A stretch of DNA of 64,000 bases, taken from contig NZ_CP121695.1 in NCBI RefSeq assembly GCF_029761915.1, positions 7,841,501-7,905,500 on the forward strand. Direction: 5' to 3'. Positions 30,699-56,885 of this stretch are shown here, in pieces. The notes under the pieces were generated by a model, which had not been told where the DNA came from, searched no databases, and worked only from the letters and a program-made list of their open reading frames with translations. This DNA is from Bradyrhizobium sp. CB1650 (GTDB lineage: Bacteria; Pseudomonadota; Alphaproteobacteria; Rhizobiales; Xanthobacteraceae). The stretch's first letter is position 1, and the number at the start of each line of letters is the position of its first letter. Position numbers and translations under genes: made by a program.

Positions 30699-30917
30699 AC
30701 TTGGAGATTTGCAGCAGAGGAATTGCTTGATTGGTCCTTGGTGATCGCCTAGATGATATACGCATGTAATTTTCTAAATCAATTGCTAAATTGCATTGTA
30801 TGTGCGTTCCATGCAGGCTGTTCTGGGCAACTTCGATGGATAGCATTGAGCTATCACCTCTCCTGAGTCGTTCACGACGCCCGTCCCTCGCGACAATGAG
30901 CAAGTGCGAAAGCTAAC

Positions 30918-31794: not shown

Positions 31795-32973
31795 TCATGA
31801 CGTGTCACAACGAAACGGATGGTCGCGCGCGCCGGCTCGCAGGACGACGTCGACGCGCCGCATGGTACCGCCGCAAGGTGGGCAGGCGGGGATCTCGCAT
31901 TTGACGAGGGGATCATCGCCGGCTTCTTGATCAGCCGGAGCGTTGCGGACGTCAAGGAGTTGACGGCAGAGAGCGATTTTATCGTTGCGTCCGCCATTGG
32001 CGAGGAAGCCATAGTGGCGAATGCGATGGAAGCCGTCCGGGAGGGCGTGCAGGAGAAAGCGCCGCATGAACTCACCGGCATCAAGCGTCATCACCTTGGC
32101 TTTGCTATTCTGCCGATAGTCCTTCCAGGAAAAGCTCACCTTACCATCGGCGAGCGAGATCAGCCGGCTGTTGGCGATGGCGACGCGATGCGTATAGCGG
32201 CCGAGATAAGCCAGCACCTGTTCGGGCCCGCCGAATGGCGGCTTGGCGTAGACGACCCAGTTGGTCCGTCGGAGCTGATCGAGCCGCTGGGTGAACGCGG
32301 CCGGATCGGCGAGGTGGGCGAGATCAGCAAAAAAGCCTAACTGGCCAGCCGCGAAGGCAGCTTGCAGCTCTTGCAGAAACAGGCGGCGGAATAGCCGGGA
32401 GAGGACGCGGACCGGCAGGAAGAAGCCAGGCCGGCAAGCGATCCAGCGTGTGCCGTCGAGCGAAGGTCCACCACCAGGCACGACACAGTGGACATGCGGA
32501 TGGTATTGCAGAGTCTGGCCCCAGCTATGGAGGACGGCAGTCACGCCGAGCTGGGCACCGAGATGCTTGGGATCGGCCGCGATGGTGGTGAGCGTCTCCG
32601 CCGCGCAGCGGAACAGGATGGCATAGACCACCGCCTTGTTCTGGAAAGCAATCTCTCTGGCCGGCGCCGGCAAGGTGAAGACGACGTGGAAGTATGGCAC
32701 GGGAAGGAGTTCGGCCTGCCGCTCGGCAAGCCATTGCGCGCGCGCCGCGCCCTGGCACTTCGGACAGTGCCGACTGCGACAGGAGTTGTAGGCGATGCGC
32801 GTCGCGCCGCAGTCGTCGCATTGCTCGACATGGCCGCCGAGCACCGCCGTCCGGCACGCGGTGATGGCGCCCATCACGCGTCGCTCGACGCGGCCGAGAT
32901 GGCCGGCATGCGCCAGTCGAAAAGCTTCGCCGTGGCGGCGGAATATGTCCGCCACCTCCAAAGCCGGACCCAT
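31795..32973 (-). CDS. IS91-family transposase (HUH rolling-circle type)
   Basis: 392 residues. The N-terminal zinc-binding domain shows EQCDDCGATRIAYNSCRSRH and CPKCQGAARAQWL. The HUH metal site is in LQYHPHVHCVVPGGGPSLDG. The catalytic Tyr region is AYLGRYTHRVAIANSRLISL, then SFSWKDYRQNSKAKVMTLDA, RHYGFLANGGRNDKI. These enzymes nick one strand and move DNA by rolling-circle transposition. The gene follows a tyrosine integrase gene with an 8-bp gap, a pairing known from rhizobial IS91-like elements. It appears intact. Confidence 0.9.
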   Translation of the reverse strand: MGPALEVADIFRRHGEAFRLAHAGHLGRVERRVMGAITACRTAVLGGHVEQCDDCGATRIAYNSCRSRHCPKCQGAARAQWLAERQAELLPVPYFHVVFTLPAPAREIAFQNKAVVYAILFRCAAETLTTIAADPKHLGAQLGVTAVLHSWGQTLQYHPHVHCVVPGGGPSLDGTRWIACRPGFFLPVRVLSRLFRRLFLQELQAAFAAGQLGFFADLAHLADPAAFTQRLDQLRRTNWVVYAKPPFGGPEQVLAYLGRYTHRVAIANSRLISLADGKVSFSWKDYRQNSKAKVMTLDAGEFMRRFLLHALPDGFHRIRHYGFLANGGRNDKIALCRQLLDVRNAPADQEAGDDPLVKCEIPACPPCGGTMRRVDVVLRAGARDHPFRCDTS

Positions 32974-32981
32974 GATCCCGG

Positions 32982-33842
32982 TCAGCTGGGCGGAACGATC
33001 TCCAATCGCAGCCGGTCAAGCGGACTCGGGGTCTGGCTGATCGTTTTGGTGGCGACTTGGGCGTAGCGTGCCGTGCTTTGCAAGCTGGCATGGCCGAGCA
33101 GCACCTGGATGACACGAATGTCGGCGCCGTTCTCCAGAAGATGGGTCGCAAAACTGTGCCGTAGTGTGTGCACCGTCACGCGCTTGTTCAGACCGGCTGC
33201 GATGTAGGCCGAGCGACACGCGGCGTGCAGCACCGTCGCATCAAGCGGCCGCTCACTGTCGCGGCCAGGAAATAGCCAGCGTGTCGGTCGGGTTAGCCGC
33301 CAATAGGCCCGCAGAATCTTCAGAAGCTGCGGCGAGAGGATGACGTAACGGTCCCTGCCGCCTTTGCCTTATTCGACCCGGATCACCATCCGCTGGCTGT
33401 CGATATCCGCGATCTTGAGGAAAACCACCTCCGATACGCGTAAACCGGTGGCATAGACTGTCGTCAACGCTATGCGGCTCTTTAGGCTCGGGATCGCCTC
33501 CAGAAAGCTCACCACCTCGTCGGCACTCAGCACGACCGGCAGCTTGCGTGGCTCCCGCGCGTAGGCGATGCGCTCCGGCATCGTGCTGTGGCCGAGCGTG
33601 ACCCCGTAGAAGAATCGCAACGCACAGACGATCTGGTTCAGGGCAGGCCATGAGATCCTCGTCGCCACCAGATGAACCTGGAACGCGTGAACGTCCTCCA
33701 AGCCCAAATGGTCGGGTGATCGGCCAAAATATCGGCTGAACTTCGATACCGCGTTGAGATATGATCGTTGCGTCGCCGGCGACAAATTGCGGACCGTCAT
33801 GTCCTCGATCATGCGTCGGCGGAGAGGGCTCAGCTGGGCCAT
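32982..33842 (-). pseudogene. Tyrosine integrase of IS91-type element, one stop codon
   Basis: A single frame runs from MAQLSPLRRRMIEDMTVRNL to [11 protein letters not shown] (287 codons) but contains TAA at 33369-33371 after MVIRVE, where CAA (Gln before GKGGRDRY) is expected. Core-binding domain, first Arg (TGLRVSEVVFLKI), HxxR ([17 protein letters not shown]), GH ([16 protein letters not shown]) and Tyr are all present. One C-to-T change explains the loss, so it is very recent, or suppressed, or a sequencing error. Confidence 0.82.
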
Positions 33843-34548: not shown

Positions 34549-35781
34549 TCAGACCGAGAACTCTTTCATCGAAACGGTGGGATCTGCCAGCCTGCGCTTG
34601 TCGACCGCCTTTCGAGATCCGATCAGCTGGCGACCCACCACGAATTCCGCCGGCGCATTGATCGCCTCGACTGATTGTAGCTTGTTGCCCATTAGGTGGA
34701 AGACCGCGAATTTGTCTCGGGCCGGATCGCCGCGGACAACTGTCTCATCCACGTCGAACGGATAGCCGGCGATCTGGAGTTTCAGATCATACTGGTCGGA
34801 CCACTGCCAGGGCACCTCGCCGGCAGGTGGCGGGCGGCCTACGATGGCAGCGGCGGCCTGCTTGGCCTGCTCCAGGGCGTTGGGCACACTCTCCATGCGG
34901 AACATGCGGCCATAGATCGGCATCGGCCGGTGGGCGACGTCGCCGATGGCGAAGACGTATGGATCGGAGGTACGCGCCTCCAGGTCAACCACTATGCCGC
35001 GGGCAGTCTGCAGTCCCGCCTCGGCGGCCAGCTCATCGTTGGGATGCGCACCGATGCCCACGACCGCGGCATCACAGCGGATCAACCGCCCATCGGCCAG
35101 CCTCACCCCTGTGATGCGGCGGCCATCGCCTTCGAAGCTCCGCGCTTTGACGCCCAGCTCGAACTTGACCCCGTGCTTCTCGTGGTACTTGCGGACGAAG
35201 GTCGACAGCACCTCACAAACCACGCGCGGCAGCGGCCGCGCCTCGCGTTCTAGCACTACTACCTCGGCACCGAGCGCCCGCCCGGAGGCTGCGACCTCCA
35301 GGCCGATGTAGCCTGCTCCGATGACAGCCAGCCGTTTGCCCGGGCCAACCTCAGCCTTCATCGTCACGGCGTCCGCAGCCGTACGGAGGAACATCACGCC
35401 TTCAAGGTTCGCGCCAGGGATCGGCAAGGCTATGGCGCGCGCGCCGGTCGCCAGCGCAAGGAAATCGTAACCCACCTCGGTTCCACCGGAGAGTTGTACC
35501 TTGCGGGCGCTGCGCTCTAGCTTCACAGCCCGGACATTGGGTCGGAAGTCAATGAATTTATCGACGTAGAACTTGAGCGGCTTCAACGCCAAGCGCTCGG
35601 CGGCGGTCTCGCCCTTCAGCCAAGCTTTGGAGAGCGGCGGCCGCTGATAGGGCGGGATCGGCTCGTCCCCGATAAGCGTGATCGGGCCCGCATGGCCGTA
35701 CTGCCGCAAGAGGGCCGCGAGCGTCCCCCCTGCCTGGCCTGCGCCGACGATAACTATTCGTGGTTGTGCGCGCAATTCCAT
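34549..35781 (-). CDS. NAD(P)H:ferredoxin reductase (FAD, putidaredoxin-reductase type)
   Basis: 410 residues from the ATG at 35781 (MELRAQPRIVIVGAGQAGGT); an ATG 11 codons upstream is also in frame. FAD binding: IVIVGAGQAGGTLAALLR at the N-terminus and TSDPYVFAIGDVAHRPMPIY near residue 290. NAD(P)H binding: RLAVIGAGYIGLEVAASGRA near 150. A C-terminal reductase domain follows (WSDQYDLKLQIAGYPFDVDE). These cytosolic flavoproteins pass electrons from NAD(P)H to a [2Fe-2S] ferredoxin for a P450. It lies downstream of the ferredoxin and P450 genes on the same strand and completes the electron chain. Confidence 0.92.
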   Translation of the reverse strand: MELRAQPRIVIVGAGQAGGTLAALLRQYGHAGPITLIGDEPIPPYQRPPLSKAWLKGETAAERLALKPLKFYVDKFIDFRPNVRAVKLERSARKVQLSGGTEVGYDFLALATGARAIALPIPGANLEGVMFLRTAADAVTMKAEVGPGKRLAVIGAGYIGLEVAASGRALGAEVVVLEREARPLPRVVCEVLSTFVRKYHEKHGVKFELGVKARSFEGDGRRITGVRLADGRLIRCDAAVVGIGAHPNDELAAEAGLQTARGIVVDLEARTSDPYVFAIGDVAHRPMPIYGRMFRMESVPNALEQAKQAAAAIVGRPPPAGEVPWQWSDQYDLKLQIAGYPFDVDETVVRGDPARDKFAVFHLMGNKLQSVEAINAPAEFVVGRQLIGSRKAVDKRRLADPTVSMKEFSV

Positions 35782-35852
35782 GTTCAGGTGATATACTTGC
35801 GTGGCGGGAGACACCGCGGCCTGCCAGTGGGATCCCCGTGAACAACCGCCGT

Positions 35853-36086
35853 TCAGCGATCATCAATGATTTGGTCACTCGAGTCCGCAAGATCGAAATG
35901 TTCTGAGGTAAAGCTTGGCCAATGGCTAAGGGCGGCGCGACGAACGCCGGCTTCACGTAAAGCGCGGTGCCCCGCCGAAGGCGCCGTGTTTCTTGACGCC
36001 TCAAACGTCATATAAAACCGCTCATAAGTAGTCTCCATCCCCATTGTCTCCGAAAGACCGGCGTTCCCGCGCAGCGAATTTGGCAT
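35853..36086 (-). CDS. Small ORF of unknown function between ferredoxin and reductase
   Basis: 77 codons (MPNSLRGNAGLSETMGMETT, then ERFYMTFEASRNTAPSAGHR) between the ferredoxin stop (36105) and the reductase start. No family or clear ribosome site was recognised. It could be a small operon protein or chance open sequence. The 320-bp gap is unusual in an otherwise tight cluster. Confidence 0.3.
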   Translation of the reverse strand: MPNSLRGNAGLSETMGMETTYERFYMTFEASRNTAPSAGHRALREAGVRRAALSHWPSFTSEHFDLADSSDQIIDDR

Positions 36087-36104
36087 CTCGAAATCGGTTC
36101 AGAA

Positions 36105-36431
36105 CTACGCTTCTTCAAAACTAGAACCGGGCGCGAGCGTCACTGTCAGGCCATCCAATTCCTCAGAGAGCGGGATCTGACAGGCAAGCCGCGAGTTTTG
36201 ACGTCGCTCGGGGGCGACATCCAACATCGCGTCTTCGTTTTCGTCTACGGGTTTAAGCTTGCTGAGTAACGCTTCATCGACGTACACATGGCAAGTGCCA
36301 CACGACGCGCAACCGCCGCACTGCGCTGTTAAATCCAACCCTGCGTCGCTAATGGCGCGCATCAATGTGGGCGCCGACACATTTTCGAGCTCAATCGACT
36401 GACCGGCTCGATCAACAATTGTCAACTTCAT
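36105..36431 (-). CDS. [2Fe-2S] ferredoxin (adrenodoxin/putidaredoxin type)
   Basis: 108 residues (MKLTIVDRAGQSIELENVSA). The cluster ligands are Cys38, Cys44, Cys47 and Cys84 in the pattern C-x5-C-x2-C...C (AQCGGCASCGTCHVYVDE, RLACQIPL). Acidic residues after the cluster loop (VDENEDAMLD) form the usual docking face for reductase and P450. It starts 11 bp after the P450 stop, so the two are probably translated together, and it is the likely electron donor of that P450. Confidence 0.95.
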   Translation of the reverse strand: MKLTIVDRAGQSIELENVSAPTLMRAISDAGLDLTAQCGGCASCGTCHVYVDEALLSKLKPVDENEDAMLDVAPERRQNSRLACQIPLSEELDGLTVTLAPGSSFEEA

Positions 36432-36442
36432 TTGAAAAAAAC

Positions 36443-37666
36443 CTAGAAGACCACATGCAGCGGACCGAAGGAACGATGAGAGAAGCCGCGGAATCGGGGC
36501 GCTTCTTTCGCAGTATCCAGACGCACGTTAGGCAGGCGAGCAATGAGGGCCTTGAGGGACTCCCTCATCTTCAGCCTGGCCAAATGCATACCGGGACAAA
36601 TCCGCGGGCCGACATTGAATGCGATGTGATCGGTTGGTCGCTTCCTCTCCAAGTCGGCCATGTGTGGGCAAGCATAATGCTCTGGGTCCCGATTTGCTGC
36701 CGCATGCAGCATACAGACCTTTTCCCCCGTCTTGATGCTTACGCCTGCGAGTGAGGTGTCACTGGTCGCTGTGCGAAACCGGAACTGGATCGCCCCGAAG
36801 AGCCGCAATGTTTCCTCAACAAACGCGTTGAGCGCGCCCTCCCGATCGTCCGTCACAGCTTGGCGCAAAGCGGGGTCAGACAAGTACAGGTATACCGCGT
36901 TAGCGATGGCGTTCGTAGTCGTTTCTCCGGCGCCAATCGCCATGTCCCTGACAAGCGAAATGATGTCATCTTCGCCGACATTATCCCAATACAGAGGGGC
37001 TAGCGTCCAGAGCTGGCTGATTAGATCGCTACCGCGCCCCTCCCGTCGCTCACGGACGAGTGGCTTAAAAATACCATTGAGTTCGACAGACGCCTTCTTT
37101 GCCTGCTGGATTCGCTCCTCGTTGGATGAATTGTAAGCCCACGCCACCACGTTCCGATGGCACTCGGCAATGTTGTCGATCAGTCCGTCGTCCTTCCAGG
37201 GAAGCCCAAACATCGACGCCATAATGCGCGGCGGAATCGCATAGGAAAAATCCGTTACAAGATCAGCGCTACCTCGCCTCTCGAAGCGGTCAATCGCATC
37301 GTTAACAACGGGCAGGACATGCTCCGTCCGGTATTGGGTCATTGCCGCTGGGCTGAAAACCCTTAGATAGAGTGGACGAAGTCGCGCGTGTTCCTCGCCA
37401 ATCAGATGGGTAACAGAGGTTTTCCCCCCCCGAATTTCGTAAGACAGCGGGGGGATGTCTTTGGACACCCAGCCTGCGTACAACTTTTCGTCCGATTCGA
37501 CCGCTTTGCAAAGTTCATAGTTCAAGATCAGCCAGCACTTCATGCCCGGATCCCAGACGACATCTCCCCTTCCTCGTAATTCATCGTAGACCGGGAAGGG
37601 ATCCTTTTCCGCGAGTGAGAGCATGGACCAATCAGGTGACAGCGGGGAAATCGCAGCAGCGTTCAT
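36443..37666 (-). CDS. Cytochrome P450 (bacterial class I)
   Basis: 407 residues, no membrane anchor. I-helix oxygen-activation motif AGETT at 246-250 (MAIGAGETTTNAIA); K-helix EETLR with Glu285 and Arg288; heme loop FNVGPRICPG with Cys357 as the thiolate ligand. The family inserts oxygen into small organic substrates using electrons from a ferredoxin; the genes for ferredoxin and reductase follow directly. The ATG at 37666 has GTAAAGGA upstream. Upstream genes encode an M24 peptidase and a solute-binding protein, an uncommon partnership that suggests catabolism or modification of an imported amide-type compound. Substrate unknown. Confidence 0.95.
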   Translation of the reverse strand: MNAAAISPLSPDWSMLSLAEKDPFPVYDELRGRGDVVWDPGMKCWLILNYELCKAVESDEKLYAGWVSKDIPPLSYEIRGGKTSVTHLIGEEHARLRPLYLRVFSPAAMTQYRTEHVLPVVNDAIDRFERRGSADLVTDFSYAIPPRIMASMFGLPWKDDGLIDNIAECHRNVVAWAYNSSNEERIQQAKKASVELNGIFKPLVRERREGRGSDLISQLWTLAPLYWDNVGEDDIISLVRDMAIGAGETTTNAIANAVYLYLSDPALRQAVTDDREGALNAFVEETLRLFGAIQFRFRTATSDTSLAGVSIKTGEKVCMLHAAANRDPEHYACPHMADLERKRPTDHIAFNVGPRICPGMHLARLKMRESLKALIARLPNVRLDTAKEAPRFRGFSHRSFGPLHVVF

Positions 37667-37692
37667 TGAAACATCCTTTACGGGTTAGGTGA

Positions 37693-38900
37693 AGTTTCTC
37701 AGCAGCGGAGTGCTCACGACCCGACTACCGGGAGTTCAGCGGGTGAAAGAACGCTGAGAAATTGATTCTGGTCAGCACCGACGCAAATGACTTCCTCGAA
37801 CTGGAACACACCATGGTCGGTTTCGAGTTTCGGTTCGACGTGCAGTACCATCCCAGGCTTGATAACCTCCGCGCTTGTGGGCGCGATCGACGGCGGCTCG
37901 GTGAAATCCAGCCCACCGCCATGGCCGATCCGACCGGCGCCGAACAGTTTGGTGAGTCCAGCAGACTTCCAGAGAGTTTCGAAGAGCGCGTAAGCGTCGC
38001 CACATGTAGAACCGGCTCGAATACCCCGACAAACCTCATGGGTGACGTGGCGCACCGCTGTGTACGCATCCCGCTCCGCGGCACTCGGGGCGCCCATTCG
38101 GGCAGTTCTATTTCGGTCGGCACCATAGCCGCCATAGGAATGATAAAAGTCCGTCCAGATGTAATCGCCGATTTCGAGGCGCCGGTCCGTTGGCCTGCGG
38201 CCATAGGCAAAAGCGTTGCGACCGAAGATTACCGGGAATGGCTCGATCTTGTCGGCGCCGTTCCTTATGAGATCGAACTGGAGTTCCTGGTACACTGATA
38301 GTTCGGTGACACCGGGCTTGAGCAATGGCAAAACGTTATCGAACGCGCGATTAGCGAGGTCCAGTGAAGCACGTATCAAACGCAGTTCGAAGTCACTCTT
38401 GATGACGCGAACGTTCCAGATGATGTTTCCGGCCTCGACGACGTCGGCATTTCGCGAAAGCCCGTCTATCAGGGGCAGTGAGCCCGCACCGGCGTGGTCC
38501 TGGCCGTAGTCAAGCCCGATCTTCGCTGCATTGCCCACCATGGATTGGGAAGTGGCAACAGCCATCTCCGTCCATTGGGGAACAAATCCACTATACAAAT
38601 GGGCGTCGCACTGGAGTCCCATGGGCTCGATAAGAGATTCGTACATCCGGGGCGCGACGAGCCCTACCCCTGATCGCCCGACCAGCAACAACGAAGGACG
38701 CGTACGATCGCCCCCATTAGGCCAGCCTGAAAAATATTGGATGTTTGCCTTTGAGGTCAGCACCATCAAATCGACAGAGGCTTGCTCCATTTCCAATCGC
38801 AACCGTCGGACCCGACCCGCGATCTCCGCAGTCGAGGCCTTCGGGGCAGGGCCGTACGCTTCAGCATTGAGGTGACTATTCACGAAATTGGTCCTTTACT
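37693..38900. repeat. 1,208-bp near-identical repeat, copy 2
   Basis: Matches 12966-14173 except at 38305, 38473 and 38831. It contains exactly the M24 gene with its ribosome site and 21 bp past the stop. The motif GTAAAGGA (minus strand) occurs both before this gene and before the adjacent P450 gene. Confidence 0.95.
37714..38883 (-). CDS. M24-family metallopeptidase (Xaa-Pro/creatinase type), copy 2
   Basis: 389 residues, identical to the gene at 12987-14156 except Thr18. Creatinase N-domain followed by the pita-bread M24 fold, with metal ligands Asp245, Asp256, His321, Glu350 and Glu363/364. It is placed between the solute-binding protein (stop at 38922, 38 bp gap) and the P450 (47 bp gap), all on the minus strand, so it is probably co-transcribed and hydrolyses what the binding protein delivers. 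It lacks a signal peptide and should be cytoplasmic. This is the copy in functional context. Confidence 0.92.
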   Translation of the reverse strand: MNSHLNAEAYGPAPKASTAEIAGRVRRLRLEMEQASVDLMVLTSKANIQYFSGWPNGGDRTRPSLLLVGRSGVGLVAPRMYESLIEPMGLQCDAHLYSGFVPQWTEMAVATSQSMVGNAAKIGLDYGQDHAGAGSLPLIDGLSRNADVVEAGNIIWNVRVIKSDFELRLIRASLDLANRAFDNVLPLLKPGVTELSVYQELQFDLIRNGADKIEPFPVIFGRNAFAYGRRPTDRRLEIGDYIWTDFYHSYGGYGADRNRTARMGAPSAAERDAYTAVRHVTHEVCRGIRAGSTCGDAYALFETLWKSAGLTKLFGAGRIGHGGGLDFTEPPSIAPTSAEVIKPGMVLHVEPKLETDHGVFQFEEVICVGADQNQFLSVLSPAELPVVGS

Positions 38901-38921
38901 AGCCGGGCCTTCGAGGTCGGA

Positions 38922-40502
38922 TCACGCTTTTTCGATGTTCCACCAGACCCTAAACCACTGAAACGGGCCCGGCAGAGCGTTGTTGATGTTGGCGCGCATC
39001 ACTGTCGGCTGCACCCATTGCCCAAAATTGACATGCGGTACGAACGTCCAGGCGTTCGCCTGCAAGTCTCGCGCGATCCTCTTGCGCTCTTCGAGCGTCT
39101 CGGCCCGCAGCCATTCGCCGCGCAGCTCCTCATGCTTGGTATCAGTCGGCCAGCCGTACCACGTGCCGTCCGCCTTGTAGTAGCTCGCGGCTGGGCTGCC
39201 GTAATCCGCAGCCGAGCTCGCGGTGACAAAGAGATTCCACCCACCTTGATGGGCCGGGGCTTTGCTACTGCGACGCTGCTCCAAACCTGCCCAGTCGACC
39301 GCCACCATTTCCACGTTGATCCCGGCGCCGCGCATCTGCTGGGCGAGGATCTCCGCCGAGTTCTTGGTCACATACCATTCGCTCGACTGCAGGATCACGA
39401 CCGGGTGGCCATCATAGCCGCCTTCTTTCAGGAGCTGCTTCGCGGTGGCATAGTCGGGCGCGTTCTTGAACCAAGGCGTATTGGCGTCGTTCTCCATCGG
39501 AACGTCGCAACCGAAGTACGAAGCGCAGGTCTTGTAGTATTTGGGATGGCCGAAGCTGGCCTTGAGATAATCGATCTGGTTGACGACGTGCAGCATTGCT
39601 TGGCGGCACTTCACGTTGTCGAACGGCGGCTGAACGCAGTTGAATTGGATCCAGCCGATCGACCCCGGCGAATTGAGTACCTGAAGCTTTAGGTTTTTAT
39701 CTTGGGTGAGCTGGTCCAGCACGTCGATCGGCGGGTCACTATGGAAGTCGATCTCGCCCGCTTGTAAAGCGGCGAGGGCGGTCTGCGCATCCGGGATGTT
39801 GACGTACACGACGCGGTCGACATTGACCACTTTGCCGCCAGCCAAGCCGCTCGGCGCCTCCTTGCGCGGCACGTAGTCTGGGTTCCTGTCGTATACGTAT
39901 TGCGCGCCTAATTTGGTCTCGATAGCATTGAATCTGAAGGGGCCTGAGCCGACGATCGCATCGATCTTCTGGCCCGGATCAGTCTCCGCTTCCTTCTTGC
40001 GCATGATGAAGCACAACCTGCCGAGCGCATCAAGGATGAGGCCATTCCGCTCCTTGAGCTGGATAGTGAAAGTTCGCTTATCCTTGGCTGAGATGTCTTT
40101 CACCTGCTCCATCAGGAGCGGCCCCCAGTCAGCGCGCGCGCCCCAACGGCGAATCGAGGGAATAACGTCGGCGGTGGTGACTTCGGTGCCATCATGGAAT
40201 CGAAGTCCGTCGCGCAGTTCGAAAGTCCACGTGAGCTTGTCGTCGGACTGCCCGTACCTGCCGACCATCTGCGGCCGCGGCACTTGTTGCAAGTCCACAC
40301 CGAAGAGCGTGTCATAAACCATAAGCGCGTGCTGCCACGTCGCCTGATTTGTACTTATGACCGGATCAAAGACGGTGATGTTTCCAGTTGTCTTAATGAC
40401 CTTGCCGGCAAACCGCTGGCCCAGCGCGATCCGGGGCGCGGCGAGCGATCCAGCGACGGCGAGACCTCCCTGCGTGAATTCGCGGCGAGTGAAATTGCCC
40501 AT
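38922..40502 (-). CDS. Peptide/opine-type ABC solute-binding protein (SBP_bac_5), Tat signal
   Basis: 526 residues (MGNFTRREFTQGGLAVAGSL); the TRREFTQ motif and following hydrophobic stretch mark a twin-arginine signal peptide, so it folds before export to the periplasm. SBP_bac_5 features: DTLFGVDLQQVPRPQMVGRY, FELRDGLRFHDGTEVTTADV, GSGPFRFNAIETKLGAQYVY. The family binds di/oligopeptides, opines and other amides. No permease or ATPase gene is adjacent; a paralogue at 53983-55569 has a complete transporter. It heads the P450 cluster. Ribosome site AAGGAG. Confidence 0.92.
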   Translation of the reverse strand: MGNFTRREFTQGGLAVAGSLAAPRIALGQRFAGKVIKTTGNITVFDPVISTNQATWQHALMVYDTLFGVDLQQVPRPQMVGRYGQSDDKLTWTFELRDGLRFHDGTEVTTADVIPSIRRWGARADWGPLLMEQVKDISAKDKRTFTIQLKERNGLILDALGRLCFIMRKKEAETDPGQKIDAIVGSGPFRFNAIETKLGAQYVYDRNPDYVPRKEAPSGLAGGKVVNVDRVVYVNIPDAQTALAALQAGEIDFHSDPPIDVLDQLTQDKNLKLQVLNSPGSIGWIQFNCVQPPFDNVKCRQAMLHVVNQIDYLKASFGHPKYYKTCASYFGCDVPMENDANTPWFKNAPDYATAKQLLKEGGYDGHPVVILQSSEWYVTKNSAEILAQQMRGAGINVEMVAVDWAGLEQRRSSKAPAHQGGWNLFVTASSAADYGSPAASYYKADGTWYGWPTDTKHEELRGEWLRAETLEERKRIARDLQANAWTFVPHVNFGQWVQPTVMRANINNALPGPFQWFRVWWNIEKA

Positions 40503-41877: not shown

Positions 41878-43391
41878 GGGGTCGTTGAAAAAGCTGCAAT
41901 TGGCTGATTCCGTTTTGGTCGGCGATTCGCGATCGGCGGAGCAAACGAGATGCTGGGGCGCAAGGAGCGGGATCAGTTGGAGCTCTTCATCACTGGCACG
42001 CTCAGACAGCTCGTCCCAGACGAGCACGTGCTGGCGCGGGTCGATCGTGTACTTGACCTGTCCTGGCTCAGGGAAGAGGTCTCCGACTGCTATTGCATGA
42101 ACGACGGTCGGCCAGGCATCGATCCGGAGGCCGCGGTCCGCCTGATGCTCGCGGGTCTGCTGACCGGCATCGTACACGATCGCAAGCTGATCCGGGAGGC
42201 TCAGGTTAACATCGCCATTCGCTGGTTTGCTGGTTATGGCCTGCATGAGCAGCTACCGCACCATTCCAGCCTGACGCGCATCCGCCAGCGCTGGGGCGAA
42301 GAGCGATTCCGTAGGATCTTTAAACGCACGGTCGAGGCCTGTCTGAACGCCAAGATCGCAACAGCCGAAGTGGTTCACATCGATGCGTCGCTAATCCGCG
42401 CCAATGTGAGTTGGGACAGCCTCACCGAGCAGCATGTGGTGGATGTGCTGAGCGAAAATCAAAGCGAAGATGAAAGCGAGGATGAGAGAAAGGGCCGGCA
42501 AAGCGAGAAGTACAAAAAGGTCTGCACGACTGATCCCGATGCGACAATGGCTACGAATGCCCGAAACCGGCGGCTGGAACCCGCTTACAAGCAGCACACG
42601 GCCGTCGATGACAAGGTCGGTGTCATTCTGGATGTCGCGGTCACGACTGGACAAACGAACGAAGGAGAGATGATCGAGCCGCAAGTCGATGAGGTTGAAG
42701 CGATTACAGGCATCGACATCAAGGTGGTCACGGCCGATGCGGGCTATGCCTACGCTAAAGTCTACGGCGCGCTCGAGCGGCGCGGGATTGATGCCCTCAT
42801 TCCAGCTAAAGCTGAACCAATCAAGAGTCGCGTACCGCTCAGACGCTTCCGGTACGATGCCAAGAACGACATCTTGAAGTGCCCGCGAGGGCGTATCTTG
42901 CGTCCCGCGCGGCCCATCAAGCACGGCCGTTTCTTTTACTCGAAGGCGAAGGATTGCGCCCGATGTCCACTCAAGGGCGATTGCCTATCCAAAAGGCGGG
43001 TTAACAAAGCGGTCGTTGTCGGTGACCATTATCCGGCACTGCTGCGCGCCCGCCGCCGTCGCGAGCGATGGAGTAAGCAGGATCGACATCTCTATCAACG
43101 CCATCGCTAGCGCTCAGAGGGCTTCCACGGCGAAGCCAAAACTTGGCATGGGCTGGCGCGCGCCGTACGGCGCGGTCTACCGAATATGAAGATCCAGGCC
43201 TACCTGACGGCCGCCGCCATCAACCTCAAGCGGCTGGCAACCGCTCTCATTGTGCTTATTCTGCCTCGGATTGTCCTTCAAAATGCGTTTGCGGCTTCAG
43301 ATCGGCCGTAGCGCGAGCTTTGACGCGAGGGCCAGGATAAGGCCGGTCGCTGCATCGCGCGAAATCCATTGGCCACTTCTTCAACGACCCC
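41878..43391 (+). mobile_element. IS1182-family element inserted in IS256
   Basis: 1,514 bp. The ends are inverted repeats GGGGTCGTTGAAAAAG (41878) and CTTCTTCAACGACCCC (to 43391), with one mismatch in 16. They are flanked by a 5-bp direct repeat CGCGT at 41873-41877 and 43392-43396. Removing the element and one CGCGT restores the IS256 frame SWQRCRVHFMRNALAH. Confidence 0.9.
41950..43311 (+). pseudogene. IS1182-family transposase with one premature stop
   Basis: The 454-codon frame starts MLGRKERDQLELFITGTLRQ and shows VVHIDASLIRANVSWDS, HTAVDDKVGVILDVAVTTGQ, VVTADAGYAYAKVYGALERR and a Cys-rich segment CARCPLKGDCLSKRRVN. A TAG at 43108-43110 replaces the expected Trp codon in YQRHR-W-RSEGFHGEAKTWHG; the remaining 67 codons stay in frame to 43311 and hold the catalytic Glu region. 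A single G-to-A change explains it, consistent with the perfect insertion footprint of a young element. Confidence 0.85.
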
Positions 43392-48517: not shown

Positions 48518-49639
48518 TCACGGAGCAGCAAGCGCCTTCATCGCCTGTCGATGGAGCTGGTGCGATCTGGTGAGAACCATCTCCTGCCAGTCAAGGTGTT
48601 GAGGATAGAAGTACCGCTTCGACACAAGCCGAAGCTGACGATCCACATCTGGATCAGCTGCACGCGATAGGTTGAAAACAATTTTGGCGAAACGGCCCTC
48701 CTTCCGCTTGAAGCGTTCCCAATCGTAAGTTCCAAACTCTACGAAGACATAGGTTTGCTGACTTCCCAATGCGCGCTGCCAGAACTGCGCTTGTGTGCCA
48801 TAAGAAGGAACTCCGGCCGTGTGCCCCATATCTGCTGTCATGAGGGACGGCCCAAAAATGCTCAGCGCCCTTTCGTAAACGCCGGAATCGGTCTGCTGCC
48901 CGGGTTCTGGTAGCTTTGAAGCGCATCCCACCTCGCCATACCCATAAGGGCCTGAACCGGTGTGGTAATCCATAATGACGACGTGGTCCCGAGCGGCTAA
49001 CTCGAAGTCTGCCACGATTCGTTCGAGCGTGAGACGCGCCTCTGTGGGTCCGGTTCCTCCGTAGTGCGCACCTCCGGGCCTAGTGTACTGTCCTCGGCCT
49101 CTCGCAGTTCTAAATTCAACGTCGGTATGCATGGATCGGTATGTGGCAATCGCCGCCTCGGCTCGGTGAATTCCCTCCTCTGATAAGTCGACCGGAACAA
49201 GATGTTCGAACAACTCCTCGTATCCCGGATTTTGGGGCAGAGGTTCGGAAAAATCGACAAAATTCCTGTTGAGGTCACAACCCTCTGCAGTGTCGCGGCG
49301 ATCCCAGGCGAACCCCCAGCAATTTAGGGCATGGATGAAAAGTACGCCTGTCGACGCTGGCAGCCTGCGGTGAAACTCCCCTTTAAGAAACATGAGCTGT
49401 GCGGCCGAACCGCAATATCCCTCCACGCCGTGTGTTCCGGAAATCAAGACGAGGAGCTTTCTGGCATCTCGCCTGCCGAAGTATGCGACGTCGGTGAAAA
49501 GTGGTTCTCCCGACGGCCCCACCAAGGTGCATGGATAAGCTTTCGAGTCCGGCGCCGCTTCAACGAACTTTCGCCTGGCTTCGAGATAATTGTCGGAAAA
49601 AGCGGCCAGCGCAGCCTGCTGAAATAGGTCAAAACTCAT
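48518..49639 (-). CDS. DUF2817 M14-like zinc hydrolase
   Basis: 373 residues (MSFDLFQQAALAAFSDNYLE). The fold resembles M14 carboxypeptidase/aspartoacylase enzymes. Zinc ligands His70 and Glu73 are in ISGTHGVEGYCGSAAQ, an Asn-Arg pair in CDLNRNFVDFSE (124-125), and a third ligand His226 in MDYHTGSGPYGYGEVG. There is no signal peptide, so it is probably cytoplasmic. It likely cleaves an amide or peptide bond. It lies downstream of the DppBCDF transporter genes on the same strand, after a 415-bp gap with its own leader, and may process the imported substrate. Confidence 0.85.
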   Translation of the reverse strand: MSFDLFQQAALAAFSDNYLEARRKFVEAAPDSKAYPCTLVGPSGEPLFTDVAYFGRRDARKLLVLISGTHGVEGYCGSAAQLMFLKGEFHRRLPASTGVLFIHALNCWGFAWDRRDTAEGCDLNRNFVDFSEPLPQNPGYEELFEHLVPVDLSEEGIHRAEAAIATYRSMHTDVEFRTARGRGQYTRPGGAHYGGTGPTEARLTLERIVADFELAARDHVVIMDYHTGSGPYGYGEVGCASKLPEPGQQTDSGVYERALSIFGPSLMTADMGHTAGVPSYGTQAQFWQRALGSQQTYVFVEFGTYDWERFKRKEGRFAKIVFNLSRAADPDVDRQLRLVSKRYFYPQHLDWQEMVLTRSHQLHRQAMKALAAP

Positions 49640-49945: not shown

Positions 49946-50054
49946 GCCGATAACTGCCTTTTAGTGTTCTGTAGCAATTTCCAACTCAGCTTGCAGAGAC
50001 CTGCGCGGCCTGCTGGCCAATTTGGCGTCTGTTGCGAGCGCGGCGACAAGCACA

Positions 50055-51089
50055 TCAGGTATCCTCGAGATTGCAGTTCAACCGGGTGAAGGAGGGTCGC
50101 GGCAACGCGCCCCGGTAGCCATCCTCGCGGAGGTGACAGGCCACGAAGTGGCCGGGCACCACCTCACGCAGCTGCGGCTCCTCGCTGCGGCAACGCTGGT
50201 TGGCGAATGGGCATCGCGTATGGAAGCGACAGCCCGAAGGCGGGTTCATAGGACTGGGTACATCGCCTTCGATCAGCAGCCGCGCGCGCTTCTGACGTGG
50301 GTCCGCAATAGGCGCGGCGCTCATTAGCGCCTGCGTATACGGATGCAGCGGCTCCTCAAATACCGGCTCCTTCGGTGCGATCTCCACGATCCGCCCAAGG
50401 TACATCACTGCAATTCGGTGTCCGATGTGCTCGACCACGCCCAAGTCGTGGCTGATGAATAGATACGCCACATTCAGCTCTTCCTGGAGATCCATGAGCA
50501 GATTGAGAACCTGCGCCTGCACCGACACGTCGAGCGCGGAGACGGGTTCGTCAGCGACGATGAGATTTGGATTGACTGCGAGCGCACGCGCGATCGCCAA
50601 CCGCTGGCGCTGTCCTCCAGAGAACTCGAAGGGAAAGCGCTTCAGCGCCTCGGCGCGCAGCCCCACCTTGCGCAGTATATCCGTTACGCGCGCTTCGCGC
50701 TCTTCTGCGGCAAGCCCTCGGAAGTTCTCGAGCGGCTCGCCCACAATCTCGCCGGCCGTGAGCCTCGGGTTTAGTGACGCGTACGGATCCTGGAAGACCA
50801 TCTGCACGTACTGTCGATGTGGGCGCAGCTCGTTCTCCGATAGATTCGTCACGTCCACGCCATCCAGACGAATGGAGCCAGCCGTGGGGTGCGTCAGGCG
50901 AAGGATGAGTTTGCCCAGAGTGGACTTGCCGCAACCGCTTTCGCCAACCACGCATAGCGTCTCGCCTCGCGCGACAGAGATGCTCACACCATCTACGGCC
51001 TTAACGCGAGCAACTTCACGGCGCAGCAATCCGCGGTGCAGAACGTAGTGCTTTTGGAGGCCGGTAACCTCCAGCACGGGAGCGTTCAT
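50055..51089 (-). CDS. dppF: Peptide-type ABC transporter ATPase (DppF/OppF-like)
   Basis: 344 residues. Walker [16 protein letters not shown] near residue 45, Q-loop [20 protein letters not shown], signature [20 protein letters not shown], Walker [16 protein letters not shown]. The C-terminal oligopeptide domain is [20 protein letters not shown] with a Cys-containing end [20 protein letters not shown]. It powers import with DppD. The start overlaps the dppD stop (ATGA, 51086-51089). Last gene of the transporter block. Confidence 0.93.
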
Positions 51090-53001: not shown

Positions 53002-53955
53002 TCAGTAGCGAATCCTCGGATCGAACAGGGGATAAGACAAGTCAACAAGCAAGTTCACCAGCATGTACACGCCCGAAAAGATCAGTGTGACACCCTGGAT
53101 GATGGGGTAATCGCGCCGGGTGATGGCATCGACGACCAGTCGCCCGATTCCCGGCAAGTTAAATACCGTCTCAGTGATGACCGCCCCTCCAATGAGAAAG
53201 CCCAGCCCCATGCCGATCACCGTCACGATCGGTGGCGCCGCGTTCTTCAGCGCATGTTTCAAGAGCAGCGCACGACCTGCCACTCCCTTGGCGCGCGCCG
53301 TGCGCATATAGTCTTCATCCAATACTTCGAGCAGGCTCGCGCGGGTGATTCGCGCGATCAGCGCCACATAAGGTAGACCGAGCGCCACCGTCGGCAGTGC
53401 CAAGCTTCGCAGCCATGGACCTAAGCCTTCGTCTAGAGGCGAGTAACCCTGTACAGGCATCCACTTCAGTTCTATCGCAAACAAAAACACGAGCAGGTAG
53501 CCCACCACGAATAAGGGCACTGAGAAGTCAAGCACGGCAAAGGTCATCACCAAGCGGTCCAAGGCTGTCCCGGCCTTGATGGCTGCGGCGATGCCTAAGC
53601 TTAGTGCCACCGTGACAGCAAAGATGGTTGTGGTGATGGCCAGCGAAATGGTCGGTTCGGCCCGCTGCGCAATCAGGGTAGCGACCGAGTCGTTCCAAAA
53701 GATCGATCGACCCAAGTCGCCTTGAGCGACATTGAACACCCAGATGAAAAACTGCTTCCACAATGGCTGATCCAGACCCATCTTCTCGCGGACTTGCGCA
53801 ATCATTTCCGGCGTGGCGTTGTCGCCGACCATCATGGCCGCCGGGTCTCCCGGTGCTAAGTGAAGCAGCGAGAAGATGATGATCGCGACGATCGCCATCA
53901 CCGGCAGCATTGAGAGAAAACGACGGATGACGTAGCTGGTCATGATCGATATCAT
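53002..53955 (-). CDS. dppB: Peptide-type ABC transporter permease (DppB-like)
   Basis: 317 residues (MTSYVIRRFLSMLPVMAIVA from the internal ATG at 53943; four more codons are possible upstream). OppB features: N-terminal helix, LAPGDPAAMMVGDNATPEMI, six predicted helices, and the coupling loop DEDYMRTARAKGVAGRALLL followed by KHALKNAAPPIVTVIGMGLG. The gene follows the binding-protein stop by about 28 bp. Together with DppC it forms the translocation channel. Confidence 0.93.
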   Translation of the reverse strand: MISIMTSYVIRRFLSMLPVMAIVAIIIFSLLHLAPGDPAAMMVGDNATPEMIAQVREKMGLDQPLWKQFFIWVFNVAQGDLGRSIFWNDSVATLIAQRAEPTISLAITTTIFAVTVALSLGIAAAIKAGTALDRLVMTFAVLDFSVPLFVVGYLLVFLFAIELKWMPVQGYSPLDEGLGPWLRSLALPTVALGLPYVALIARITRASLLEVLDEDYMRTARAKGVAGRALLLKHALKNAAPPIVTVIGMGLGFLIGGAVITETVFNLPGIGRLVVDAITRRDYPIIQGVTLIFSGVYMLVNLLVDLSYPLFDPRIRY

Positions 53956-53982: not shown

Positions 53983-55569
53983 TCACGCTTTCTCGACGTT
54001 CCACCAGGGCCTTAGCCAAGAGAATGGGACCTTCATCATGCCCTTCAGGTTGGGGCGCAGCAGCATTGGTTGCATCCACTGGCCGAAGGTCACAAATGGC
54101 ACGAAATCCCAGGCGTTCTCCTGAATTTCGCGCGCAATCTTCTTGCGCTCTTCAATAGTTTCGGCACGCAGCCATTTGGCCCTGAGTTCCTCGTGCTTAG
54201 CGTTGTCCGGCCAGCCGAACCATGCCCTGTCGCCGTTTGCCGCATTGACGATGTGCAGCGGATCGCTGGTCACCGCAGTGCCATTCGATGTGAGAAAAAT
54301 GTTCCATCCACCTTGCTCCGGCGGAGCCTTCACCGCGCGACGCGCCACGACACCGCCCCAGTCCAGAGGCACTAGTTGAACGCTCATTCCGGCAAGGCGC
54401 ATCTGCTGCGCAAGAATTTCGGCCGAACTCTTGGCGAGAGGCCAATTCGTCGGCTGCAGAATCAAAACGGCACGACCATCGTAGCCTCCCTCCTTCAACA
54501 GCTGCTTCGCCCTGGCATAGTCCGGCGCAGCGTTGAACCACTCGGTGTTGGCATCGTTTTCCATCGTTGTGCCGCAGGAGAAGTAGGAGGGACACGTTTT
54601 GAAGTAGCTCGGATTGGCGAAATTGCCCTTCATAAAATCAATTTGATTGACGAGATACAGAAGCGCTTGGCGGCATTTTACATTGTCGAAGGGTGGCTGC
54701 AGAAAATTCAAACGGATCATGCCGGTCGAGCCGCCGGGACAGAGCACTTCCAGTTTCACGTTGCTGTCGTGCGACAGCTGATCGATCAGGTCGGTCGGCG
54801 GATCTGAAAAGAAGTCAGCCTCGCCGGCTTGCACAGCTGCGACCGCGGTGTGAGGGTCGGTTATGTTCACGTAGACGACACGATCAACCTTGACGACCTT
54901 GCCACCCGCGAGGCCGCTTGCCGGCTCCTTGCGCGGCAAGTAATCGAGGTTTCGGTCGTAGACGTATTGCACGCCTGGTCGAGTCTCGGCTTGGTTGAAG
55001 CGAAAAGGGCCGGAGCCGACGATCGCCTCGATCTTCCGCGCTGGATCAGTCTCCGCTTCCTTCGTGCGCATGATTAAGCAGTTCGATCCCAGGCCGTCGA
55101 GGAGCAGGCCGAAGGGCTCCTTGAGCTGCACGGTGAAGGTCTTGTCGTCTTTTGTAGAGATATCTTTCAAACGCTCCATCATGAGCTGTCCGCGGCCATC
55201 CTTTGCCGCCCAACGCCGTATGGAAGCAGCGACGTCGCCAGTAGTGACCGCCGTGCCGTCATGAAATTTGAGCCCCTCGCGCAGTTCAAACGTCCAAGTG
55301 AGTTTGTCCTCCGACAAGCCGTACTTACCCACCATCTGGGGCTGTGCGATCTGCTGTGCGTCCAGTCCGAACAGCGTATCGTACACCATAACCGCGTGAT
55401 ATAAGGTAGCGTCCGTGGTGCTAACTACTGGGTCGTAAGCAGGGATATCGCCAATCGCCCTGATAACCTTGTAATTGCGACTTTGGCCCATCACCGCCTT
55501 CGGCCCGACAGCCGCGCCTGCGAGGGCGACGCCGGTCTGGAGGATTTCGCGCCGCGTGAAAGCGCCCAT
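53983..55569 (-). CDS. dppA: Peptide/opine-type ABC solute-binding protein (SBP_bac_5), Tat signal
   Basis: 528 residues (MGAFTRREILQTGVALAGAA) with a twin-arginine signal (FTRREILQ). Long matching stretches with the protein at 38922-40502 (DTLFGLDAQQIAQPQMVGKY, GSGPFRFNQAETRPGVQYVY, QPPFDNVKCRQALLYLVNQI) show the two are paralogues. It is encoded immediately before its own permeases and ATPases, so it delivers the ligand to DppBCDF. The ligand is unknown; family members take peptides, opines, nickel-chelates or sugars. Confidence 0.93.
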   Translation of the reverse strand: MGAFTRREILQTGVALAGAAVGPKAVMGQSRNYKVIRAIGDIPAYDPVVSTTDATLYHAVMVYDTLFGLDAQQIAQPQMVGKYGLSEDKLTWTFELREGLKFHDGTAVTTGDVAASIRRWAAKDGRGQLMMERLKDISTKDDKTFTVQLKEPFGLLLDGLGSNCLIMRTKEAETDPARKIEAIVGSGPFRFNQAETRPGVQYVYDRNLDYLPRKEPASGLAGGKVVKVDRVVYVNITDPHTAVAAVQAGEADFFSDPPTDLIDQLSHDSNVKLEVLCPGGSTGMIRLNFLQPPFDNVKCRQALLYLVNQIDFMKGNFANPSYFKTCPSYFSCGTTMENDANTEWFNAAPDYARAKQLLKEGGYDGRAVLILQPTNWPLAKSSAEILAQQMRLAGMSVQLVPLDWGGVVARRAVKAPPEQGGWNIFLTSNGTAVTSDPLHIVNAANGDRAWFGWPDNAKHEELRAKWLRAETIEERKKIAREIQENAWDFVPFVTFGQWMQPMLLRPNLKGMMKVPFSWLRPWWNVEKA

Positions 55570-55640: not shown

Positions 55641-56885
55641 TTAGTGTTCGCGAGCCAAGCTATTCAGGACGCCCTCCACCGGGCCTTCATTGGCGATCAG
55701 AGGCTCGAGTTCGCGCGTGGACACGTCCGAATCTTTCCATCCAGCTGCCGTGCCCAGGCAGACCACGGTTTGCGATGGCAGGACCGTTCCCGCGCGAACG
55801 AGCTGCCTCAGCGCAACCAGCGGCATGACACTCGCCAGCTCTAGGAACAGTCCCTCGTGATGAGCAAGTAATTCTTGCGCGGCAATGAGCCCCTCATTAC
55901 CGACCCTGATTACAAGACCATCCGTTTCGCGCAATGCCTTCAGGGCTTGGTACGCGCTCTGCGCAGTATCTACCGACTTATCTAGCGCTGCCTCCTCTAT
56001 GGTCGCCGCGCACACCGCGTCATCACCATTGCGCATGGAAAACAGCAGGGAACCGTGGGCTTCTGCGGCAACAAGCCTCGGCAAGCGGTCGATGACGCCG
56101 GATTCCAACAAATCGGCGAATCCTTGCGCTACACCACTCAAAGCATCGCCATACGCCACGGGCAGCACCACCCAGTCGGGAGCGCGCCCGAGATCGGCGG
56201 CGATTTCGTAAGCGATCGTCTTGTAGCCCTCGACGCCCACCGGAAGGCTTCCGACAACCGGAGCCGTGCGCGGAGATGTCGCCAGCCATCCTTCGAGTGC
56301 CATCCCGGCCCGCAGGAGAGGCCATCGATCTTCCGTGCGCTTGAGAAGCACCAGTTGCGCACCCAATTTTCGGATCTGGGTCAACATCGGACCCGCGGCG
56401 CCCTCCGCGGCGACGACGACGCATCGCAGCCCGGCACGCGCTGCATAGGCTGCCAGTGACGCACCAGCATTGCCAGAGGAAGCCGTCGCCACGGTTTTGA
56501 CTCCGAGCTGCACAGCATGCGTGACGGCGACTGTACTGAGCCTGTCCTTAAATGAGCTTGTCGGATTGCGGGATTCGTCCTTGACGAAAAGCTCCTTGAG
56601 GCCGAGGTCCCGCGCAACACGTTGAAGTCGCACCAAGGGCGTTCCGCCTTCGCCGAGCGTCACCGCATTCTCGCCGGAGACAGCTAGCATCTCCTGGTAC
56701 CGCCAGACCCCCGGCAGGCGACTCAGCGCCGCACCGAAATCCCAACTCGCTCGAACAGCCGGAGCATGGAGCACCGCCAGATTCGCAGCTCTTTCTCCTT
56801 CGCAACGAGAGCATCCGGATCCGAGATAATCAAGAGCATGCTCGCGACCGCAACGAACACACGCAAGCGCCGCGCGCCGCATCAT
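55641..56885 (-). CDS. Threonine-synthase-like PLP enzyme
   Basis: 414 residues. An N-terminal zinc-ribbon-like part has Cys9, Cys12, Cys25 and Cys28 ([20 protein letters not shown]), as in threonine synthases of the ThrC class. The PLP lysine is Lys113 in [18 protein letters not shown]; the phosphate loop is [36 protein letters not shown] follows. The family does beta/gamma-elimination or replacement on amino acids. Location at the head of a transporter operon suggests a catabolic lyase or dehydratase rather than threonine synthesis; this is inference. The start overlaps the upstream ORF stop. Confidence 0.88.

What the first reader, a model, noticed from the sequence alone, without database searches (positions are those of the whole stretch)
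34549..40502. P450-ferredoxin-reductase set joined to a binding protein and an M24 peptidase
Five minus-strand genes appear to form one functional unit: Tat-exported solute-binding protein, M24 metallopeptidase, class I P450, its [2Fe-2S] ferredoxin, and an FAD reductase. Seen directly: gene order, short gaps (38, 47 and 11 bp), heme Cys357, ferredoxin Cys38/44/47/84, and M24 metal ligands. Known: these families form a complete oxygenase electron chain and an amide hydrolase. Inferred: import of an amide-, opine- or peptide-like compound followed by hydrolysis and oxidation. I do not recognise this combination as a described pathway.
Basis: partly seen in the sequence, partly recalled or inferred. 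Interest (0 to 1): 0.72.

Follow-up and report, generated by a model that had tools for sequence, protein, structure and literature searches.

The report
Rhizobial P450 joined to amino-acid scavenging genes
In the symbiosis region of a nitrogen-fixing soil bacterium, an oxygen-using enzyme (a P450) sits among genes that probably import and break down a small amino-acid-like compound; the parts are known families, but I found no description of the combination, and its target compound is unknown.

Summary
The five genes, coordinates, gaps and active-site residues are as reported. The genome is a Bradyrhizobium; in all six one-contig genomes with this P450 it lies 242-437 kb from nodA.

The exact five-gene order was seen only here. 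P450-ferredoxin is a recurrent cassette (9 of 13 other places), with a metal-ligand-bearing M24 nearby at 5 of 13. Such M24 genes often sit in ectoine-degradation-like modules. But the transporter family (0 of 4 loci) and DUF2817 (0 of 14 stretches) are not linked to this M24 type or to the cassette elsewhere.

The window's reductase is foreign: 36-41% identical to the cassette's usual reductases, which share 58-89%. Best reading: an IS-shuffled catabolic module for an unknown amide- or N-substituted amino-acid-like compound. Known parts, new combination; no expression or substrate evidence.

The parts
38922..40502 (-). SBP1: SBP_bac_5 (Opp/Dpp-type) solute-binding protein with twin-arginine signal
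   Evidence: Pfam PF00496 225 bits; 63% identical to SBP2 at 53983-55569
37714..38883 (-). M24 hydrolase (Creatinase_N + Peptidase_M24), dinuclear metal ligands kept, second catalytic His replaced by Thr328
   Evidence: AlphaFold model pLDDT 92, prolidase fold
36443..37666 (-). class I cytochrome P450 of a mainly rhizobial family (55-64% to the 16 relatives compared; one relative at 81%)
36105..36431 (-). [2Fe-2S] adrenodoxin/putidaredoxin-type ferredoxin, partner of the P450
   Evidence: PF00111; directly follows the P450 at 9 of 13 other places
35782..36104 (-). unusually long Fdx-FdR spacer (290 bp to GTG, 323 bp to ATG), no gene recognised; possibly the scar of a replaced reductase (inference)
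34549..35781 (-). FAD ferredoxin reductase of a different clade from the cassette's usual reductase; ATG start at 35781 preferred over GTG at 35814
   Evidence: 36-41% to cassette reductases; 2 of 265 genomes, this one included, at E<=1e-115; best plasmid hit 58%, beside an alkane 1-monooxygenase
12966..14173 (-). second M24 copy: 1208-bp block, 3 mismatches; ORF 12987-14156
14207..14392 (-). remnant of a third SBP_bac_5 gene upstream of the second M24 copy (84% nt to SBP1)
53983..55569 (-). SBP2, SBP_bac_5
53002..53955 (-). DppB-like permease
   Evidence: PF00528/PF19300
52126..53001 (-). DppC-like permease
   Evidence: PF00528
51086..52129 (-). DppD-like ATPase
   Evidence: PF00005 + oligo_HPY
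50055..51089 (-). DppF-like ATPase
   Evidence: PF00005 + oligo_HPY
48518..49639 (-). DUF2817 protein, M14/aspartoacylase-like metallohydrolase, possible deacylase
   Evidence: PF10994 282 bits; GTHGxE and LNR motifs shared with DoeB-like proteins, weak profile match; carboxypeptidase/aspartoacylase-like fold, modest TM
55641..56885 (-). PLP fold-type II enzyme, threonine-synthase-like
   Evidence: PF00291 206 bits; 34-39% to PLP enzymes of M24-DoeB modules; below the cut-offs of the 25 NCBIfam families shown of 37 matched
31795..32973 (-). IS91-type transposase flanking the unit
33369..33842 (-). tyrosine integrase fragment flanking the unit
41950..43110 (+). DDE transposase (DUF772) between the two gene blocks

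Best explanation
A mosaic, IS-bounded catabolic module on a Bradyrhizobium symbiosis island. SBP1 (and SBP2) capture a small amide- or N-substituted amino-acid-like solute, which the DppBCDF transporter at 50055-53955 imports (inferred). The M24 enzyme, a dinuclear metallohydrolase that is not a canonical prolidase, cuts a C-N bond of it; the M14-like DUF2817 protein removes an acyl group; the PLP enzyme processes the freed amino acid (inferred from the ectoine-degradation-like modules in which M24 relatives sit). NAD(P)H passes electrons through the reductase and ferredoxin to the P450, which hydroxylates, perhaps N-dealkylates, the compound or an intermediate. Shown: gene content, families, catalytic residues, recurrence of P450-Fdx near M24 and transporter genes, symbiosis-island location, foreign reductase. 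Inferred: order of steps, one shared substrate, union of the two gene blocks, co-transcription, function of the reductase with this P450. (On checking I lowered this from 0.50 to 0.45, because the block at 48-57 kb is not linked to this M24 or P450 in the other genomes seen.)
For: Families and residues. P450 family in 9 of 265 Bradyrhizobium genomes and this M24 family in 11 of 265, 5 shared (hypergeometric 5e-6; 6e-5 if only the 160 nodA genomes count). In the stretches round the 13 P450 places outside this genome: metallo-M24 5, any M24 8, ABC-transporter part 7, ferredoxin 9. In this genome 1 of 15 P450 matches lies within 12 kb of an M24. Same order M24-P450-Fdx-FdR in G238; M24, Opp transporter and P450-Fdx-FdR on one strand in G033. 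M24 with a DoeB-like deacylase at 5 of 13 other Bradyrhizobium places and at the 4 plasmid loci opened of 407 records matched. SoxB/SoxA-type genes 1.2-1.8 kb from the P450 in two Bradyrhizobium and one Mesorhizobium. SBP1-family proteins elsewhere have DppBCDF at 4 of 4 loci. All nine P450 places in the six one-contig genomes lie 242-437 kb from nodA. 5 of the 9 P450 genomes are among the 28 of 265 with this DUF2817.
Against: Exact five-gene order seen only here. The SBP1-family loci (0 of 4) and the DUF2817 stretches fetched (0 of 14, holding 15 of the 33 other places) contain neither the metallo-M24 nor the P450 cassette; 6 of the 14 DUF2817 stretches have a y4tL-type M24 instead. So the union of the two gene blocks rests on this genome alone. 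Cognate reductase absent from the genome (best 41-42%), so electron supply is unproven. Metallo-M24 proteins near P450s elsewhere belong to three clades other than the window's, so the linkage may have arisen more than once, and G147/G239 are close relatives. At 5 of 13 other places no M24 was found (three of them on contigs of 4.3-12.6 kb). Transporter counts include generic ATPase matches of about 36-37% identity. SBP1 lacks adjacent permeases. No -24/-12 pattern above chance and no nod box. No expression or substrate data.
Confidence: 0.45

Rival explanations
1. Accidental mosaic: IS activity on the symbiosis island has placed an SBP-M24 pair, a P450-Fdx cassette and an unrelated reductase side by side; they share no pathway and the P450 may lack a working reductase.
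For: Transposase/integrase genes on both sides; non-orthologous reductase after a 290-bp spacer; duplicated M24 and broken SBP copy; exact order seen only here; SBP1-family and DUF2817 loci elsewhere lack this M24 and the cassette.
Against: Gaps of 38, 47 and 11 bp; all five frames open; P450 near metallo-M24 in four other genomes.
Confidence: 0.3
2. Peptide scavenging plus separate P450: SBP and M24 import and cleave Xaa-Pro-type peptides; the P450 cassette does unrelated chemistry.
For: Best PDB sequence and fold matches of the M24 are Xaa-Pro and other dipeptidases; Dpp-type transporter.
Against: The prolidase His is replaced, TEPP in 22 of 24 aligned; relatives often sit with DoeB-like and PLP enzymes; P450 repeatedly near M24.
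Confidence: 0.16
3. Biosynthesis rather than breakdown: the P450 tailors a peptide or cyclodipeptide signal and M24/SBP process or sense it.
For: Best NCBIfam match of the P450 is the cyclodipeptide-synthase-associated P450 family, but at 143 bits against a cut-off of 500.
Against: No synthase or ligase recognised among the ORFs scanned (not searched for specifically); genes near the cassette elsewhere look catabolic (M20, SoxAB, 2-hydroxyacid dehydrogenase, importers).
Confidence: 0.06

Closest known systems
y4t region of Sinorhizobium fredii NGR234 pNGR234a and its R. etli bv. mimosae counterpart (Ehu importer, M20, EutB, EutC, two M24, SBP_bac_5-DppBCDF; y4t letters recalled)
   Same: SBP_bac_5 transporter beside M24 hydrolases on a rhizobial plasmid; SBP1 is 45-46% identical to the SBPs there
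   Different: No P450 in the 29-kb and 26-kb stretches shown; their M24 proteins are of another clade without the metal ligands, one scoring 397 bits to DoeA, below its cut-off of 613
Ectoine degradation (doeAB/eutBCDE with ehuABCD)
   Same: Combination of ABC importer, M24 hydrolase, aspartoacylase-type deacylase and PLP enzyme (passages of PMC10228743 and PMC5924519; family assignments partly recalled)
   Different: Window M24 scores 46 bits against a 613 cut-off for DoeA; has metal ligands; Dpp-type importer; adds a P450
P450-ferredoxin genes Msi332-Msi331 of Mesorhizobium loti R7A with a NifA-RpoN-type promoter (that they are CYP127A is recalled)
   Same: P450 with a possible ferredoxin gene on a symbiosis island (passage of PMC3538637)
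   Different: Ferredoxin there is DUF1271-type; the best-ranked of 1240 plasmid records matched by the window P450 is 33% identical
Prolidase / Xaa-Pro dipeptidase (3q6d, 5giu, 4ege)
   Same: Fold and metal ligands
   Different: Thr replaces a catalytic His; 17-27% identity in the listed fold matches to prolidases and X-Pro peptidases

Membership tests
Class I bacterial P450 system | Heme-Cys motif FxxGxRxCxG, ExxR, I-helix acid/Thr | tested here: met
   C357, E285/R288, AGETT
Class I bacterial P450 system | Own [2Fe-2S] ferredoxin and FAD reductase | tested here: inconclusive
   Both genes present, but the reductase is not of the clade that goes with this P450 elsewhere
Ectoine hydrolase DoeA/EutD | TIGR02993 score over 613 bits | tested here: not met
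   46.4 bits
Ectoine-degradation-like module (my own definition) | Importer + M24 + M14-type hydrolase + PLP enzyme near each other | tested here: inconclusive
   All four kinds lie in 37.7-56.9 kb of the window, but split by transposase genes, and the two blocks are not linked in other genomes seen
Prolidase (Xaa-Pro dipeptidase) | D, D, H, E, E metal ligands | tested here: met
   D245, D256, H321, E350, E363
Prolidase (Xaa-Pro dipeptidase) | Second active-site His (HExP motif) | tested here: not met
   Thr328 here; TEPP in 22 of 24 aligned sequences
Prolidase (Xaa-Pro dipeptidase) | Cleaves Xaa-Pro | not testable with these tools
   needs an assay
Cyclodipeptide-synthase-associated P450 (TIGR04538) | Score over 500 bits | tested here: not met
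   143 bits
CYP127 (NGR234, M. loti) | Over 40% identity (P450 naming rule, recalled) | tested here: inconclusive
   Best-ranked plasmid match is 33% over 95% of the query, in a collection that holds pNGR234a; 40 of 1240 records were listed and the NGR234 CYP127 was not compared directly, so membership is unlikely, not excluded
Dpp/Opp-type importer | SBP_bac_5 with two permeases and two ATPases | tested here: met
   SBP2 with 50055-53955; SBP1 itself has none adjacent

The most novel reading that the evidence does not exclude
A rhizobium-centred P450 family works as a portable oxidation step that symbiosis islands plug into different ectoine-like amino-acid-derivative catabolic modules (M24, DoeB-like, SoxAB, M20, PLP enzymes with their importers), letting symbionts feed on host- or nodule-made N-substituted amino acids; this would be an oxidative, rhizopine-like nutrient route not yet described.
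Probability: 0.3. Interest if true: 0.66.

Novelty: new variant of a known kind. Interest (0 to 1): 0.42.

Why it matters
Symbiosis islands hold many scavenging gene sets whose compounds are unknown. A P450 found repeatedly near amino-acid-type importers and hydrolases in the nod region points to an oxidised or N-alkylated plant or nodule metabolite as a possible selective nutrient. It gives a defined set of proteins (P450, ferredoxin, M24, DUF2817, SBP) to assay for that compound.

Tried and rejected
CYP127 membership: made unlikely, not excluded. Ectoine hydrolase identity of the M24: rejected. Remnant of the cognate reductase in the window: only the present reductase matched well. Cognate reductase elsewhere in the genome: none, best 41-42%. 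NifA/RpoN promoter and nod box: two pattern matches against 2.0 expected, neither within 5 kb upstream of this unit; no nod box. Promoter and terminator scan: no more sites than shuffles. P450 in a draw of 397 genomes of the order: 1 of 397, this genome; a direct search of Mesorhizobium was not possible. The scan of 84,980 species genomes returned 4 loci, found through six short peptide patterns of one sequence, so it sees near relatives only. Hope that the transporter or DUF2817 loci of other genomes would show the whole module: they did not (0 of 4, 0 of 14). DUF2817 against DoeB by profile comparison was weak (probability 15%, P 0.0017); the model (pLDDT 79) matches carboxypeptidase A and aspartoacylase folds with TM 0.3-0.5. 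Papers: ten searches (two returned nothing) listed no title on this gene combination. I saw listings with abstract beginnings, and passages of PMC8197338, PMC13207237, PMC10228743, PMC5924519, PMC3538637 and PMC6321122; no whole text. The library lacks most subscription papers.
Full report
Observation. Five minus-strand ORFs occupy 34549-40502 as described and belong to the named families above Pfam cut-offs. The gaps 38, 47 and 11 bp are right. The fourth gap, Fdx to reductase, is 290 bp (323 bp if the ATG at 35781 is the start, where homology to other reductases begins). Heme Cys357, ferredoxin Cys38/44/47/84 and the M24 ligands D245, D256, H321, E350, E363 are present. The residue at the second active-site His of prolidases is Thr328; 22 of 24 aligned sequences carry TEPP there, the two exceptions being the NGR234 proteins.

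Surroundings. The window is G000:C1:7841501-7905500 of a 9.43-Mb single-contig genome, a Bradyrhizobium judging by named relatives. An IS91-type transposase and an integrase fragment lie on one side and a DDE transposase on the other. At 12966-14173 a 1208-bp block repeats the M24 gene with 3 mismatches; beside it 14207-14392 is a remnant of an SBP gene only 84% identical to SBP1. An SBP-M24 neighbourhood therefore exists twice, and the M24 gene looks homogenised or recopied more recently than the SBP (gene-conversion-like; inference). At 48518-56885 lie, on the same strand, DUF2817, DppF, DppD, DppC, DppB, SBP2 (63% to SBP1) and a threonine-synthase-like PLP enzyme. Between the blocks (40.5-48.5 kb) I recognised only transposase-type genes, one by Pfam, the rest by eye from the ORF list. 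SBP1 has no permeases of its own; the transporter of the second block is the natural partner (inference), since SBP1-family proteins elsewhere come with DppBCDF at 4 of 4 loci.

Where the P450 family occurs. With E <= 1e-110 it is in 9 of 265 Bradyrhizobium genomes at 14 places, 13 of them outside this genome; in a draw of 397 genomes of the order only this genome had it at 1e-100. Named homologues at 50% identity or more are mostly Bradyrhizobium and Mesorhizobium, with a few Burkholderia, Caballeronia, Nocardia and Sinomonas records; many others are unnamed. The nearest, 81%, is in Bradyrhizobium sp. RT9b on a 7-kb contig whose context I could not see. All 9 genomes have nodA, against 160 of 265 over the NodA cut-off (hypergeometric P 0.0097). 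In the six genomes of one contig, this one included, all nine P450 places lie 242-437 kb from nodA, so the cassette is a symbiosis-region passenger.

Its neighbours. I fetched all 13 other places and mapped a panel of proteins on them. A ferredoxin follows within 20 bp at 9 of 13 and a cognate reductase is present at 6 of 13. A metal-ligand-bearing M24 lies in the stretch at 5 of 13, any M24 at 8 of 13 (one a partial match), and an ABC-transporter part at 7 of 13, generic ATPase matches included. Stretches reach mostly 8-12 kb to each side and some contigs are short (4.3-12.6 kb), so these are lower bounds. G238 has M24-P450-Fdx-FdR-M24 on one strand, with 323 bp between the first M24 and the P450. 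G033 has a y4tL-like M24, an Opp transporter with a distant SBP_bac_5, then P450-Fdx-FdR on one strand within about 13 kb. G147, G239 and Mesorhizobium helmanticense (L011) have SoxB- and SoxA-type genes 1.2-1.8 kb from the P450. Mesorhizobium sp. (L012) has an Ehu-type amino-acid importer, an M20 hydrolase and an aminotransferase upstream. As a control, of 15 P450 matches and 8 M24 matches in this genome only the window pair lies within 12 kb. Genomes with the P450 (9) and with this M24 family (11) overlap in 5 (P 5e-6; 6e-5 within nodA genomes). G147 and G239 loci are near relatives, so independent events are fewer.

The M24 family. At the four plasmid loci that I opened, of 407 records matched, M24 relatives (40-43% identical) sit with a DoeB-like deacylase, a PLP enzyme and Ehu-type importer genes, three of the four with a GntR regulator. 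The DoeB-like gene is also near M24 at 5 of 13 other Bradyrhizobium M24 places. The deacylase tested scores 281 bits to TIGR02994 against a cut-off of 403, so it is DoeB-like, not shown to be DoeB. A tree of 44 rows groups the window M24 with the clade of the plasmid proteins (95/97 support) and apart from the NGR234 type. The AlphaFold model (pLDDT 92) has a prolidase-type fold; creatinase and ectoine hydrolase also match, lower down. The window's DUF2817 protein shares GTHGxE and LNR motifs with the deacylases and a carboxypeptidase/aspartoacylase-like model, with modest scores.

Results against one module. In other genomes the second block is not linked to the first: the four SBP1-family loci and the 14 DUF2817 stretches fetched (15 of 33 other places) hold no metallo-M24 and no P450 cassette (L107 has an unrelated P450, 25%); six of the 14 hold a y4tL-type M24. 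5 of the 9 P450 genomes are among the 28 of 265 with DUF2817, but in G033 for instance the two lie about 48 kb apart.

The reductase. P450s compared are 55-64% and ferredoxins 59-73% identical to the window's, but the reductases only 36-41%, although those reductases share 58-89% among themselves (two records of one contig disregarded). No cognate-clade reductase was found elsewhere in the genome (best 41-42%). Close relatives of the window reductase are rare in the genus (2 of 265 at 1e-115, the other G206 at 67%, without a P450 of this family nearby). The best plasmid hit (58%) is beside an alkane 1-monooxygenase, the second (56%) in an acyl-CoA gene set. The simplest account is that the original reductase was lost and another captured downstream.

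Mechanism. The most likely reading is a catabolic module: capture by SBP1/SBP2, import by DppBCDF, hydrolysis by M24 and DUF2817, PLP chemistry on the product, and P450 oxidation of the substrate or an intermediate. The SoxAB neighbours in two genera hint at N-methyl or betaine-type chemistry, but this is a hint only. Family resemblance fixes neither compound nor order of steps.

Comparison with what is known. It resembles an ectoine-degradation module but is not one: the DoeA cut-off is not met by the window M24. The y4t region of NGR234 already shows SBP_bac_5-DppBCDF next to M24 genes, so that half of the finding is not new; a gene named y4tO is among transporters down in an RpoN mutant of Bradyrhizobium sp. 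DOA9 (one passage of PMC13207237). The Mesorhizobium P450-ferredoxin pair with a NifA-type promoter has a different ferredoxin type. Ten literature searches, listed under Tried and rejected, gave no title describing a P450 in such a module, within an open-licence library.

Verdict. Real, partly conserved, assembled from known families; the novelty lies in the recurrent presence of a rhizobial P450 cassette near amino-acid-type importers and hydrolases in symbiosis regions. Substrate, expression and reductase compatibility are open.

Noticed in passing
window 12966-14173 and 37693-38900: Two M24 copies identical over 1208 bp but for 3 A/G differences, with sharp ends just outside the gene; the neighbouring SBP remnant is only 84% identical, as after gene conversion.
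   Followed up: partly
window 28908-31400; L061 from 13062 and 15094; L120 from 13827 and 14834: A divergent Porin_2 / MarR pair recurs near other scavenging gene sets in the same genome (68% / 78%) and in G033 (72% / 81%).
   Followed up: no
G000:C1:7791567-7914195: Five M24-type genes within about 125 kb of the symbiosis region, in at least three clades.
   Followed up: partly
L011 2239-10824, L054 7591-16773, L056 6218-15513: SoxB-SoxA genes before P450-Fdx-FdR in Mesorhizobium and two Bradyrhizobium genomes, hinting at an N-demethylating branch.
   Followed up: partly
window 58772-59392: CoA-transferase family III fragment (206 aa, about half of the profile) upstream of the PLP enzyme, probably a truncated gene.
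   Followed up: no
G000:C1:7406742-7410095: Two other P450 genes lie about 2 kb apart, some 150 kb from nodA; possibly the gibberellin operon known from rhizobia (guess, not examined).
   Followed up: no
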